Positions 14,720-19,787 of a DNA stretch of 64,000 nt are shown here, one piece after another. A program made the translations under genes and the position numbers. Below the pieces are notes generated by a model, which did no database searches, had not been told where the DNA came from, and saw only the letters and a list, made by a program, of their open reading frames with translations. The stretch is from Burkholderiaceae bacterium. GTDB lineage: Bacteria > Pseudomonadota > Gammaproteobacteria > Burkholderiales > Burkholderiaceae_C. The DNA lies in assembly GCA_004323695.1 (NCBI GenBank), contig SCRU01000152.1, positions 1 to 64,000 of the forward strand. Reading direction: 5' to 3'. Numbering within the stretch: position 1 is the first letter of the stretch; every line of letters starts with the position of its first letter.

Positions 14720-15472
14720 TCACCCCGGCCCCGGTCGGGGGCTGCGCTGGCGCAGCGCCTCGTACAAACACACGCCGCTGGCCACCGACACGTTCAGGCT
14801 CTCCACCGCGCCGCGCATCGGGATGTTCACCAACTCATCGCAGGTCTTGCGCGTGAGCTGGCGCATGCCCTCGCCCTCCGCCCCCAGCACCAGCGCCACC
14901 GGGCCTTTCAGATCCATCTGGTAGATGGATTGGGGCGCATCGTCGCTGGTGCCGATGCACCAGATGTTGCGCTCCTTCAACTCTCCCAGCGTCCGCGCCA
15001 GGTTCGTCACCATGAAGTACGGCACCGTCTCGGCTGCGCCGCTCGCGACCTTGGCCACGGTGGCGTTGATGCCGGCCGCGTGGTCCTTGGGCGCGATCAC
15101 GGCGTGCGCACCCGCGCCGTCGGCCACGCGCAGGCAGGCGCCCAGGTTGTGCGGGTCGGTCACGCCGTCCAGCACCAGCAGCAGCGGCGGACCGCTGACC
15201 TGATCCAGCAGGTCGTCGAGCGAATGCGCCTGCGGCAGCGGTTGCACCCGCGCTGCCACGCCCTGATGCCCGTGGCTGCCGGCCAGTTTGGAAAGCCGCA
15301 GGCCATCCGCCTCGATCAGCCGCGCGCCAGCCTCGGTGGCGCGCTCGAGGAACTGGCGCATGCGCGCGTCGCGGCGCGTCGGCTCGTAAAAAATCTCGAT
15401 GATGGATTGCGGCGCGGTCTTGAGGCGCACGCCGACGGCATGGAAGCCGAACAGCACTTTGGGGGACGACAT
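14720..15472 (-). CDS. rlmB: 23S rRNA (guanosine(2251)-2'-O)-methyltransferase RlmB
   Basis: SPOUT motifs [78 protein letters not shown]. Confidence 0.95.
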
Positions 15473-15574
15473 GCCGGGATTATCGGCGTTAGTCGATTAC
15501 TATTAAATATATAGCTATATGTTCATACCCATCAAGGGCTAATGGCCATTTTCTATCACAATCAAGCTCCGTCT

Positions 15575-15668
15575 GCCCCGCTTCGATACCGATGCGCCGC
15601 TCGCGGCGCTCAGCAAACCCGCAGTTGCGCATGACGAAAACAGCGTGGCCGAGTTCGTAGTTCAGATC
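15575..15668 (-). pseudogene. Degraded remnant of the C-terminus of an ABC-transporter ATPase
   Basis: Minus-strand DLNYELGHAVFVMRNCGFAERRERRIGIEAG aligns with DLNRELGTTLVLVTHDERIAGRCERRIQIEAG of the intact ABC gene at 17305-18015. By hand count, 15575-15616 matches 17346-17387 at 35 of 42 nt. Confidence 0.7.
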
Positions 15669-15772
15669 GGATCCAGCTATATTTCCGAGGGCTACCACGC
15701 ATCTGCGTACCTTATCGGTTGACAGGTGTCGCACTTCGGTTTTGATCGGCACGACAACCAGGAGTCAGCAAC

Positions 15773-16459
15773 ATGAATGCTCTTCCATTGATCGTCTTCG
15801 ATGTCAACGAGACGCTTCTTGACCTTGAAACGATGGAACCCACCTTCCAGCGCATTTTTGGCGACAGCAGCGCAATGCGCCTGTGGTTCGCCAATCTCAT
15901 CATGTATTCTGCGGCGCTGACCGTGGCAGGCTGCTACGTGCCGTTCACCGATATCGGATCGGCTGCCATGAAAATGCTGGCGGATACACGCGGCATCAAG
16001 ATTGACGACCAAGACAAGAAGGAGCTCACGGAAAAATTTTCAACGATGCCGCCGCACCCTGAGGTTCCAGCGGCGCTACATAAGCTGCGCAATGCAGGAT
16101 TCCGGCTTTTCACTCTCACGGATAATCTGCTCGAGATTCAAACCCGCCAGATCGAACATGCTGGAATCGCTGACCTCTTTGAGCGACGATTCAGTGCGGA
16201 CGGTGTAAAGCATCACAAGCCGTCGCGCGAGGCCTATGCCTATGTCGAAAAAGAGCTTGCGGTCGAACCCTCCCGCCTGTTTCTTATCGCCTGCCATACA
16301 TGGGACACGCTAGGCGCCGTCGCGGCGGGCTGGGGGGCAGCGTTGATCAAGCGCGCCGGCAACGATGTTCTGGGAGTCGGCCCCCAGCCGCAGATGGTGG
16401 GCAATGACCTGGAAGACATTGCCAATCAACTCATCGCTCGCCACAAGGGGCGGAGTTGA
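15773..16459 (+). CDS. HAD-superfamily haloacid dehalogenase type II
   Basis: PLIVFDVNETLLDL, FRLFTLTDNLLEIQTRQIEHAGIADLFERRFSADGVKHHKPSREAYAYVEKEL, and FLIACHTWDTLGAVAAGWGAALIKR. Confidence 0.92.
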   Translation: MNALPLIVFDVNETLLDLETMEPTFQRIFGDSSAMRLWFANLIMYSAALTVAGCYVPFTDIGSAAMKMLADTRGIKIDDQDKKELTEKFSTMPPHPEVPAALHKLRNAGFRLFTLTDNLLEIQTRQIEHAGIADLFERRFSADGVKHHKPSREAYAYVEKELAVEPSRLFLIACHTWDTLGAVAAGWGAALIKRAGNDVLGVGPQPQMVGNDLEDIANQLIARHKGRS

Positions 16460-16557
16460 AGCAGGTCATGCTGACGCTCAGTGTCACATTCCGTATTCCA
16501 GCCCAACTTGAAGACTCTCCTTGCGGGAAATCGGGGCAGGTTCCAATTATTCACAGA

Positions 16558-16923
16558 TTAAGTCAGCGCGCCTAGTGGCACGTCCAGCGCGGCCGCAAGC
16601 TTCTTGAGCGTTCCCACGGAGCCCTCGCGCTTGCCGCCTTCGATCTGGCTGATGAACGGCTTGCTCACCCCTGCGGCCGCAGCCAGTGCGTCCTGCGTCA
16701 GACCGCGGTGCTCGCGCCAGGCGCGCACCGCGTGCATGCCGTCCGCCATGGCGTGCGCCACCTTGGCCGGGTAGCGAACGCCGTCATCGCTGGCAACTGC
16801 ATCGGCGTAGGCGGCCGCATCCTCGGCATCTTCGGCCATCTCGCGCATTTTCGCCCAAAGGTCCGCCGGCACCACATAGGCCACGGGCTTGCCGGCAACC
16901 TCCACTACCTGCACCCTGCTCAT
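16558..16923 (-). CDS. Antitoxin with Phd-like N-terminal segment and C-terminal XRE-type HTH
   Basis: N-terminal VQVVEVAGKPVAYVVPADLWAKMREMAEDAEDAAAYADA; C-terminal VRAWREHRGLTQDALAAAAGVSKPFISQIEGGKREGSVGTLKKLAAALDVPLGAL. Confidence 0.87.
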   Translation of the reverse strand: MSRVQVVEVAGKPVAYVVPADLWAKMREMAEDAEDAAAYADAVASDDGVRYPAKVAHAMADGMHAVRAWREHRGLTQDALAAAAGVSKPFISQIEGGKREGSVGTLKKLAAALDVPLGALT

Positions 16924-17177
16924 TTGTAGACCCCTCCGCGCGGGCCGACCCGCAGCACGCGCACAACCACCCGTCCCGAATCGACGTCATAGATGACGCG
17001 CCAGTCGCCCACGCGCAGCCGGTAGCCCGGCTCGCCTACGAGCTTCTTGACGTTGGCCGCGCCGAACGGATCACGCGCCATGCTTTCGATCTTCTCCAAC
17101 ACCACCCGGCGAGTATTTGCCTGCATCGCTGCCAGTGCCTTCACGGCCTGTCTGGTGTATTCGATCGAGTGCACCAT
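16920..17177 (-). CDS. RelE/ParE-superfamily toxin
   Basis: MVHSIEYTRQAVKALAAMQANTRRVVLEKIESMARDPFGAANVKKLVGEPGYRLRVGDWRVIYDVDSGRVVVRVLRVGPRGGVYK. ATGA overlap with the antitoxin; ATG at 17177. Confidence 0.9.
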   Translation of the reverse strand: MVHSIEYTRQAVKALAAMQANTRRVVLEKIESMARDPFGAANVKKLVGEPGYRLRVGDWRVIYDVDSGRVVVRVLRVGPRGGVYK

Positions 17178-17182
17178 TGATA

Positions 17183-17209
17183 TTAGCAATAAGTTAACAA
17201 AATTGCAAA
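17183..17209. promoter_or_regulatory. Inverted repeat TTAGCAAT-N11-ATTGCAAA upstream of the toxin gene
   Basis: 7 of 8 arm positions are complementary, and the site directly abuts the toxin start at 17177. Confidence 0.45.
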
Positions 17210-17304
17210 CTCGGTTTGGCCGAATTGTTCTTGCGAGGGGGGGGTTAAGCCGCATTCGCTTTCTGCTCAACGACTCGGCGCAATGACCCAACACTGCTTG
17301 CTTG

Positions 17305-18015
17305 CTACGACGTAAAGGCGCCCTCCTCCTTGGGAACCACCACCCGCCCCGCTTCGATCTGGATGCGCCGCTCGCAACGCCCGGCAATGCGCTCGTCATG
17401 GGTCACCAGCACCAGTGTGGTGCCCAATTCGCGGTTCAGGTCAAACATCAGCGCCATGATGGTCTCGCCAGTGGCGAAGTCGAGGCTGCCGGTGGGCTCG
17501 TCGGCCAGCAGCACCGCCGGCTGTACCACGAAGGCGCGGGCCAGCGCCACGCGCTGCTGCTCGCCGCCGCTCAGGACCTTGGGATAGTGGCCCAGGCGCT
17601 GCGACAGGCCCACGCGATCCAGCATCTCGGTAGCGGCCCTGCGCGAGTCTTTTCGCCCCGCCAGTTCCAGCGGCAGCATCACGTTCTCCAGCGCCGACAG
17701 GTTGCCCATTAGCTGGAAGCTCTGAAACACAAAGCCGGCCTTTTGCGCGCGCAGCGCGGCGCGGTCGTCCTCGCCCAGGTCGAACAGGTCCTGCCCGTCC
17801 AGCCGCACGGTGCCGCGCGTGGGCGTGTCCAGGCCAGCGATGATGGACAGTAGCGTGCTCTTGCCCGAGCCGGAGGCGCCCACGATGGCGGCGGTCTCCC
17901 GCGGCGCCAGCGAGAAATCGATATCGCGCAAAATGTCGAGGGTGCCGGTCGAGTCGGTCACTGATTTGAAGAGGTGCTCGACGGAAACAATGGCGGGCGC
18001 AGATGGGATGGACAT
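17305..18015 (-). CDS. ABC transporter ATP-binding protein (LolD/YbbA-like)
   Basis: Walker A GASGSGKSTLL, signature LSGGEQQRVALARA, Walker B VLLADEPTGSLD. ATG at 18015; the longer ORF start is antisense to the esterase gene. Confidence 0.94.
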   Translation of the reverse strand: MSIPSAPAIVSVEHLFKSVTDSTGTLDILRDIDFSLAPRETAAIVGASGSGKSTLLSIIAGLDTPTRGTVRLDGQDLFDLGEDDRAALRAQKAGFVFQSFQLMGNLSALENVMLPLELAGRKDSRRAATEMLDRVGLSQRLGHYPKVLSGGEQQRVALARAFVVQPAVLLADEPTGSLDFATGETIMALMFDLNRELGTTLVLVTHDERIAGRCERRIQIEAGRVVVPKEEGAFTS

Positions 18016-18030
18016 GAAGGATTTGAAGTC

Positions 18031-18693
18031 TTGATTCGACGACACTTTATCGCGACGGCGCTCGGGCTGGGCTACATGCGGGCCTGGGGCGCACAAAACA
18101 AGCCGGGCGCCGCCGCCGCTGCTGTCGCTCGTCCCCCCAGGACCATTTTGGTGCTGGGCGACAGCCTGAGCGCCGAGTATGGCCTGCCGCGCGGCAGCGG
18201 CTGGGTCGCCTTGCTGCAAAAGCGCCTGGCCGATGAAAATATTGCCGCCATCGTGAAGAACGCCAGCATCAGCGGCGAGACCACTTCGGGCGGGCGCTCG
18301 CGGCTGGCCGCGCTGCTCGGCGCCGACAAGCCCGGCATCGTGATCCTGGAGCTCGGCGCCAACGACGCGCTGCGCGGCCTGCCGCTGGCGATGACGCAGG
18401 ACAACCTGCACCAGATGACGCGGGCCGCGCAAAAGGCCGGCGCCAGGGTGCTGCTGCTGGGCATGCAGGTGCCGCCCAACTACGGCAGTGAATACGCCGA
18501 CCGCTTTGCCGCGATCTATGGCGAGGTCGCGAAGGCTGACAAGGCCGCGCTGGTGCCATTTTTTCTCAAGGGCGTGGCCGACGCGCCGAATGCCGCGGAG
18601 CTGTTCCAGAGCGATGGGCTGCATCCCATTGCCGCGGCGCACCCGACCCTGCTGAACAACGTCTGGCCCGAATTGAAGAAGCTGCTCGAATGA
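18031..18693 (+). CDS. SGNH-family arylesterase (TesA-like)
   Basis: ILVLGDSLSAEYGLPRGSGW, GETTSGGRSRLAALL, ILELGANDALRGLP, DGLHP. Possible TTG start at 18031. Confidence 0.92.
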   Translation: MIRRHFIATALGLGYMRAWGAQNKPGAAAAAVARPPRTILVLGDSLSAEYGLPRGSGWVALLQKRLADENIAAIVKNASISGETTSGGRSRLAALLGADKPGIVILELGANDALRGLPLAMTQDNLHQMTRAAQKAGARVLLLGMQVPPNYGSEYADRFAAIYGEVAKADKAALVPFFLKGVADAPNAAELFQSDGLHPIAAAHPTLLNNVWPELKKLLE

Positions 18694-19787
18694 ACGTGAC
18701 GCAGGTTCCGGCCCTCGATGCCATTGCGCGGCTGGGCGCCTACAGCGCGATCATCGATGCGCGCAGCGAGGACGAATTCGCCGAAGACCACCTGCCCGGC
18801 GCGCTGAACTGGCCTTCGCTGAACAACGAGGAGCGCAAGCTGGTTGGCACCCTGTACAAGCAGGTGAGCCCGTTCGAGGCGCAAAAACGCGGCGCGGCGC
18901 TGGTGGCGGCGAACATCGCGCGGCACATCGAGCGCGAACTGCTGGACAAACCCAAGAGCTGGCAGCCGCTGATCTACTGCTGGCGCGGCGGCAAGCGCAG
19001 CAATTCGCTGGCGCTGGTGCTGGGGCAGATCGGCCTGCGCGTGGCGGTGCTGGAGGGCGGCTACAAGGCGTTTCGCGGCGCCGTGCTGGCCAGCCTGCCT
19101 GAACTGGCCGCACGCCTGTCGTATCGCGTGATTTGCGGCCCCACCGGCTCCGGCAAGACGCGATTGCTGCAGGCGCTGGCGCAGGCCGGCGCGCAGGTGC
19201 TGGATCTCGAGGCGCTGGCCTGCCACCGCAGCTCGGTGCTGGGGCAGATTCCGGGCGAAACACAGCCGTCGCAAAAGCGCTTCGACAACCTGGTGTGGAA
19301 TGCACTGCGCCAATTCGACGCGGCACGCCCGGTGTATGTCGAGAGCGAAAGCCGGAAAGTCGGCAACCTGGCCGTTCCCGATGCGCTGATCGCCGCGATG
19401 CGCGCCAGCCCCTGCCTCGATCTTCAGTTGCCCGAGCCCGAGCGCGTGGCGCTATTGCTGGAAGACTACCGCTTCTTCGTGCAGGATCCGGCCCTGTTCT
19501 GCGCCCGGCTGGACGCGCTGACGGCACTGCGCGGCACGGCTGTGGTGCAGGCTTGGCACGACAAGGTGAACGCCGGGGACATCGAGACCGTGGTGCGGGA
19601 GCTGTTGGCGACCCATTACGACCCGGGCTACGCGCGCTCCATCGCGCGCAATTTCAGTCAGTACGAAACATCAAAAAAGATAGCGCCATTTGACCGCTCC
19701 GTCGGGGCCATGGCCGAATTGGCGCATGAAATCCTGACGCAGGCCGGGACCGCGAATCAAGAGCCGCTGGGCGTACCCGGCCCTTGA
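18690..19787 (+). CDS. mnmH: tRNA 2-selenouridine synthase
   Basis: Rhodanese domain with IIDARSEDEFAEDHLPGALNWP and LIYCWRGGKRSNSLALVLGQIG; P-loop GPTGSGKTRLLQAL. Confidence 0.94.
   Translation: MNVTQVPALDAIARLGAYSAIIDARSEDEFAEDHLPGALNWPSLNNEERKLVGTLYKQVSPFEAQKRGAALVAANIARHIERELLDKPKSWQPLIYCWRGGKRSNSLALVLGQIGLRVAVLEGGYKAFRGAVLASLPELAARLSYRVICGPTGSGKTRLLQALAQAGAQVLDLEALACHRSSVLGQIPGETQPSQKRFDNLVWNALRQFDAARPVYVESESRKVGNLAVPDALIAAMRASPCLDLQLPEPERVALLLEDYRFFVQDPALFCARLDALTALRGTAVVQAWHDKVNAGDIETVVRELLATHYDPGYARSIARNFSQYETSKKIAPFDRSVGAMAELAHEILTQAGTANQEPLGVPGP

What the first reader, a model, noticed from the sequence alone, without database searches (positions are those of the whole stretch)
15575..17387. 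HAD dehalogenase plus TA island bracketed by an intact and a decayed copy of the same ABC-ATPase gene end
Seen: minus-strand 15575-15668 encodes DLNYELGHAVFVMRNCGFAERRERRIGIEAG, matching the C-terminus of the ABC ATPase at 17305-18015 (DLNRELGTTLVLVTHDERIAGRCERRIQIEAG). 15575-15616 matches 17346-17387 at 35 of 42 nt by hand. Both copies have the same orientation. The sequence between them holds a haloacid dehalogenase and a toxin-antitoxin pair and looks less GC-rich than its surroundings. Inference: an element entered at the 3' end of the ATPase gene and supplied a fresh gene end, leaving the old end decaying beside rlmB. Ancestral order would be rlmB-ABC-arylesterase-mnmH. I see no integrase, so it may be a non-autonomous or passenger module, or the scar of a tandem duplication.
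Basis: partly seen in the sequence, partly recalled or inferred. Interest (0 to 1): 0.72.

Follow-up and report, generated by a model that had tools for sequence, protein, structure and literature searches.

The report
Foreign insert swapped a gene's end
In this bacterium a small piece of foreign DNA, now carrying a dehalogenase-like gene and a toxin-antitoxin pair, entered the end of a conserved transporter gene, gave that gene a new working end and left the old end decaying beside the next gene; the pattern is known from other genes.

Summary
The stretch 15577-15669(-) is a decayed copy of the ABC-ATPase 3' end. In four congeners' whole genomes the ABC tail is its top hit (E 6e-11 to 8e-9), a better match than the intact copy 1.7 kb away.

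The inference also holds in outline. The intact ABC gene is sibling-like (about 92% nt) up to nt ~614, then foreign: by E-value its tail ranks 115th in similarity to sibling G006, behind over 100 genomes of other genera. The displaced copy leans towards the native, sibling-type sequence. So foreign DNA with a substitute ABC end, now also holding a RelE/ParE-HTH toxin-antitoxin pair and a low-GC HAD gene, entered about 100 nt before the stop codon.

In 75 of 83 relatives rlmB follows ABC on the same strand; none has HAD/TA or a displaced tail there. Congeners have a lipoprotein gene in that gap, which this genome lacks.

The mode of entry is unresolved: one-sided homologous recombination, or site-specific integration as with e14 in E. 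coli icd. No integrase, donor or reuse of the site was found. One new case of a known kind; modest interest.

The parts
17403..18015 (-). native body of the ABC-ATPase gene (YbbA/LolD-like), codons 1 to ~204
   Evidence: ~92% nt identity to three congeners; NCBIfam best hits are the YbbA and LolD models, below cut-off
17305..17402 (-). foreign substitute 3' end of the ABC gene, in frame; carries the LVLVTHDE (H-loop) stretch
   Evidence: mismatch to all siblings rises from 4.6% to 29.8% at nt 614; 115th by E-value in similarity to the G006 tail; nearest relatives only 84-86% over 78-92 nt
16920..17180 (-). RelE/ParE-type toxin gene
   Evidence: PF05016, 40 bits
16558..16923 (-). HTH antitoxin gene, overlapping the toxin gene by 4 nt
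   Evidence: PF01381, 54.6 bits
16554..17211 (-). toxin-antitoxin unit with its upstream region, conserved as a block in congener G002 at a different place
   Evidence: 74% over 661 nt to L139, beside a tyrosine integrase gene
15773..16459 (+). haloacid dehalogenase type II gene, low GC, foreign
   Evidence: TIGR01428 159 bits; no match at E<=1e-50 in 300 other family genomes; best class-level relatives 46%
15577..15669 (-). displaced, decayed native 3' end of the ABC gene
   Evidence: 76% over 96 nt to the G006 orthologue; top hit in four congener genomes
15493..15553 (-). dispersed intergenic repeat ahead of rlmB, possible endpoint of the deletion that removed the lipoprotein gene
   Evidence: this part of the spacer (query 220-280) matches many places in congeners
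14720..15472 (-). rlmB, native
   Evidence: TIGR00186 241 bits; sibling-like along its length
18073..18693 (+). GDSL esterase, native flank
   Evidence: PF13472; adjacent to ABC throughout the family
18690..19787 (+). mnmH, native flank
   Evidence: rhodanese domain; synteny

Best explanation
An ancestor of this strain, probably after its split from its sibling species, took up foreign DNA that began with the last ~100 nt of an orthologous ABC gene from another member of the family. It joined the resident ABC gene within a conserved ~20-nt stretch (GACCTGAACCGCGAA..., around nt 587-614). The resident gene thereby acquired a complete foreign C-terminus and stayed open, while its own end was pushed ~1.7 kb downstream, next to rlmB, where it decays. 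The foreign segment now holds a toxin-antitoxin pair, which may help to keep it in place, and a HAD gene; the two may have come at different times. Shown: the homology, the change of affinity inside the intact gene, the native leaning of the remnant, and the absence of all this from relatives. Inferred: the mode of joining. I put one-sided homologous joining with an illegitimate far end (homology-facilitated illegitimate recombination) slightly ahead of site-specific integration by a now-lost or trans-acting integrase.
For: The ABC tail is the top hit of the remnant in four congener genomes, and this is the only displaced tail among the relatives' ABC-rlmB gaps examined. The remnant's four closest ABC genes of 84 are the four congeners; the intact copy ranks seventh. 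Break in the intact gene at nt 614; tail identity to siblings 72-74% against 91-93% for the body, while siblings keep 95-98% among themselves. The window's tail ranks 115th in similarity to G006. Both flanks (esterase/mnmH, rlmB) are sibling-like, so a misassembly would need two chimaeric joins, and could not create a decayed tail. HAD and TA are absent from all relatives' loci at this place.
Against: Informative sites in the remnant favour the sibling type only 11:5 (one-sided p 0.1), because the remnant is short and decayed. ABC tails vary in this family: a few pairs of other species with similar body identity have tails as different. No donor with an ABC end next to this TA or HAD was found. 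No integrase, no terminal repeats beyond the ABC ends, and no second genome using the site.
Confidence: 0.8

Rival explanations
1. Site-specific integration (a variant of the best explanation): a small element with its attachment site inside a copy of the ABC 3' end integrated as phage 21 and e14 do in icd, replaced the gene end, then lost its integrase and most of its body.
For: Anatomy is that of icd/e14/icdC, checked in MG1655: icd, e14, then the 165-nt icdC pseudogene, 92.7% identical to the icd tail. The native tail resumes within ~20 nt of where the foreign tail begins, so little or no native sequence was lost at the joint. A related TA unit in congener G002 sits beside a tyrosine integrase gene. 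The genome has other tyrosine recombinases that could act in trans.
Against: No integrase gene or fragment between the two ends. No other displaced tail in the relatives' loci. No ABC tail in viral contigs, no hit in phages. HAD and TA differ in composition.
Confidence: 0.33
2. Scar of a tandem duplication of the ABC gene or its end, followed by decay of one copy and insertion of HAD/TA between them.
For: Two same-strand copies of one gene end 1.7 kb apart.
Against: A duplication predicts that remnant and intact end resemble each other most; instead the remnant is nearest to congeners and the intact end is an outlier from its own genus.
Confidence: 0.08
3. Two unrelated events: the native end was copied or left by an older rearrangement, and separately the intact end was overwritten by recombination with a relative.
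For: Recombination of short tracts between relatives is common (general knowledge); the ABC-rlmB gap has different contents in many genomes.
Against: Needs two coincident events at the same ~20 nt of one gene.
Confidence: 0.08
4. Chance similarity in GC-rich DNA.
For: The 42-nt core alone is short.
Against: Top hit in four whole genomes at E down to 6e-11, same frame, same strand, neighbouring position.
Confidence: 0.01

Closest known systems
icd / e14 / icdC in Escherichia coli K-12 (same site as phage 21, from memory)
   Same: Foreign DNA enters near the 3' end of a conserved gene, supplies an alternative in-frame end, and leaves the native end as a pseudogene at the far side (checked in NC_000913.3).
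   Different: e14 is a 15-kb prophage with its integrase, and the two ends are 93% alike over 165 nt; here the insert is about 1.7 kb without integrase, the target is an ABC-ATPase gene, and the displaced end is only ~64-76% like any ABC end.
Displaced effector 3' ends and orphan immunity genes in T6SS and Rhs loci (PMC5361080), explained there by homology-facilitated illegitimate recombination
   Same: Homologous anchor inside a gene, new 3' part plus new downstream genes, old 3' end shifted downstream and retained.
   Different: There the swapped parts are effector genes and the pattern recurs in many strains; here it is a single case in a transporter ATPase gene with no sign of recurrence.
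Homology-facilitated illegitimate recombination (PMC3240628)
   Same: Foreign DNA joined by homology at one end and without homology at the other.
   Different: Known from selected laboratory events; here it is inferred from an old scar, and the far joint cannot be read at base level.

Membership tests
Gene-end replacement by foreign insertion with displaced native end | Target gene stays open but its 3' part is foreign | tested here: met
   Break at nt 614, 2dLL 48.9 vs permutation maximum 22.7; tail ranks 115th
Gene-end replacement by foreign insertion with displaced native end | Native end present at the far side of the insert | tested here: met
   15577-15669(-): ABC tail is its top hit in congeners; four congeners rank first, informative sites 11:5
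Gene-end replacement by foreign insertion with displaced native end | Insert and displaced end absent in relatives | tested here: met
   No HAD/TA and no remnant in relatives' ABC-rlmB gaps; congeners have other genes in the gap
Integrative element (phage, ICE, IME) with an attachment site in a protein gene | Integrase in or next to the insert | tested here: not met
   ORFs between the ends are HAD, toxin and antitoxin only; remaining gaps <130 nt
Integrative element (phage, ICE, IME) with an attachment site in a protein gene | Near-identical direct repeats (attL/attR) at both ends | tested here: inconclusive
   Repeat is 35/42 in its best part and decayed elsewhere
Integrative element (phage, ICE, IME) with an attachment site in a protein gene | Same site used in other genomes | tested here: inconclusive
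   None among relatives' loci, no viral contig; second-copy hits in family genomes were not traced one by one
Homology-facilitated illegitimate recombination | Homology at one joint, none or microhomology at the other | tested here: inconclusive
   Homologous joint is clear; the far joint (~15670) is too decayed to read
Type II toxin-antitoxin pair | Overlapping RelE/ParE toxin and HTH antitoxin genes | tested here: met
   conserved as a pair in other genomes
Type II toxin-antitoxin pair | Toxicity and neutralisation | not testable with these tools
   Needs expression assays

The most novel reading that the evidence does not exclude
The 3' end of this YbbA-like ABC gene is an undescribed integration site for small, integrase-less, TA-carrying elements in Comamonadaceae-type bacteria that are mobilised in trans and bring a substitute gene end with them.
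Probability: 0.08. Interest if true: 0.55.

Novelty: new member of a known kind. Interest (0 to 1): 0.36.

Why it matters
It is a readable scar of how foreign genes can enter next to a conserved gene without breaking it, in a gene where I know of no earlier description. It shows that a displaced-gene-end test (sibling-like body, foreign end, native tail downstream) can reveal old insertions that have lost every hallmark of a mobile element, and that test could be run across genomes automatically.

Tried and rejected
Tandem duplication: rejected by the affinity switch. Chance: rejected. Recurrent remnants at the same site: none among relatives' loci; the apparent hits in short gaps are overlaps of the query with the gap itself. 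Phage or plasmid origin: no phage match; plasmid matches only partial for TA and 49% for HAD. Viral contigs for the ABC gene or its native tail: nothing. Donor of the foreign end: best 84-86% only. lolD as a published integration site: no paper in the library. Loading the whole genome into Python was not available.

Full report
What is there. The window comes from a 3.8-Mb draft genome (203 contigs); related loci are from Rhodoferax, Acidovorax, Ramlibacter and other Comamonadaceae. On the minus strand an ABC-ATPase gene (17305-18015; best NCBIfam models YbbA and LolD, both below cut-off) is followed by a toxin gene (16920-17180), an HTH antitoxin gene (16558-16923), a HAD type II gene on the other strand (15773-16459), a spacer, and rlmB (14720-15472).

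The repeat is real. As a query, the spacer finds the intact ABC end as its best non-self hit in its own genome (E 2.3e-5), and the ABC ends of congeners G006, G001, G005 and G002 as the top hit in each of their whole genomes (E 6e-11 to 7.6e-9). The match runs 96 nt at 76% with G006.

Common order in relatives. The set is 80 loci fetched with the ABC protein (L010 is the G006 locus) plus G001, G002 and G005. In 75 of these 83 rlmB follows ABC on the same strand; in 55 or so the gap is at most 222 nt, and the others have further genes in it. Of the remaining eight, some end at a contig edge and some have no rlmB nearby. None has HAD or this TA at the site. Congeners G001, G002, G005 and G006 have a lipoprotein-like gene in the gap, with a PEP-CTERM gene in G001 and G002 and several more genes in G005. 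That lipoprotein gene was not found in the window's genome (completeness 98%). So this lineage probably lost it, and the short remnant-rlmB distance is secondary.

The intact end is foreign. Up to nt ~600 the intact ABC gene is about 92% identical to three congeners. After that identity falls to 77-82% and then 62-71%, whereas the congeners stay 95-97% alike. A one-breakpoint model puts the change at nt 614 (window ~17402), 4.6% against 29.8% mismatch, 2dLL 48.9, never reached in 300 codon-block permutations. Pairs of species with 90-94% body identity have tails of 83-84% on average; the three pairs with this gene have 72-74%, low but not unique. Searching 400 family genomes with the G006 end, the window's own end comes 115th by E-value, behind over 100 genomes of other genera (my count of the listing). 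Nearest relatives of the foreign end are 84-86% identical: a family member, donor unknown.

The displaced end is native. Ranked by identity over up to 109 columns, the four ABC genes nearest to the remnant, of 84, are the four congeners; the intact neighbour is seventh. At sites where the intact end and all three siblings differ, the remnant follows the siblings 11 times, the intact end 5, neither 2; alone this is weak (p 0.1). The remnant begins around nt 587 and the foreign end around 608-614, so the native gene was cut within about 20 nt of a conserved stretch, with no visible loss. The remnant's divergence (24% from G006) is of the order expected if it has decayed neutrally since about the time of the species split; this is a rough inference, not a dating.

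Cargo. HAD has GC3 66% against 84-90% for neighbours, no match at E<=1e-50 in 300 other family genomes and 46% relatives at class level. The TA toxin has relatives in 7 of 400 family genomes at E<=1e-15; the closest pair, in congener G002, is 74% identical in DNA over 661 nt and lies beside a tyrosine integrase gene, on another contig than its ABC gene. HAD and TA therefore look like separate arrivals.

How it got in. The anatomy equals icd/e14/icdC in E. coli, which I checked, and also the displaced 3' ends of T6SS and Rhs genes, for which homology-facilitated illegitimate recombination was proposed (PMC5361080; process described in PMC3240628). A site-specific element explains the near-lossless joint; against it stand the missing integrase, the absence of reuse in relatives and of viral contigs with this end. 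One-sided recombination explains the lack of machinery, but no donor with this arrangement was found. I give gene-end replacement by foreign DNA 0.8, and within it lean slightly to one-sided recombination; the 0.33 for site-specific entry is a share of that 0.8, not a competitor to it.

Verdict. It is a new member of a known kind, a single old event; interest 0.36.

Noticed in passing
15493-15553: AT-rich intergenic repeat before rlmB that recurs at many places in congeners; probably a dispersed lineage-specific repeat.
   Followed up: partly
L139 (G002 contig C41) 212-2443: A relative of the window's TA pair lies beside a tyrosine integrase gene with Arm-DNA-bind_3 and Phage_int_M domains; the contig ends just past the antitoxin gene.
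   Followed up: partly
ABC-rlmB gap in L014, L019, L024, L026, L033, L034, L048, L067, L068, L078, L093: The gap between the ABC gene and rlmB holds different genes in different genera (a protein-kinase-like gene, an oxidoreductase, transposase-like pieces and others): a variable junction across the family.
   Followed up: partly
17305-18693: ABC gene and GDSL esterase are divergent neighbours, as ybbA and tesA are in E. coli (from memory), but here rlmB, not a permease gene, follows the ABC gene in most relatives.
   Followed up: no
own genome, contigs C1, C5, C33, C41, C57, C70, C76, C139, C174, C187, C201: Thirteen tyrosine recombinase matches over the family cut-off, more than the usual XerC/XerD pair; several near contig ends.
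   Followed up: no
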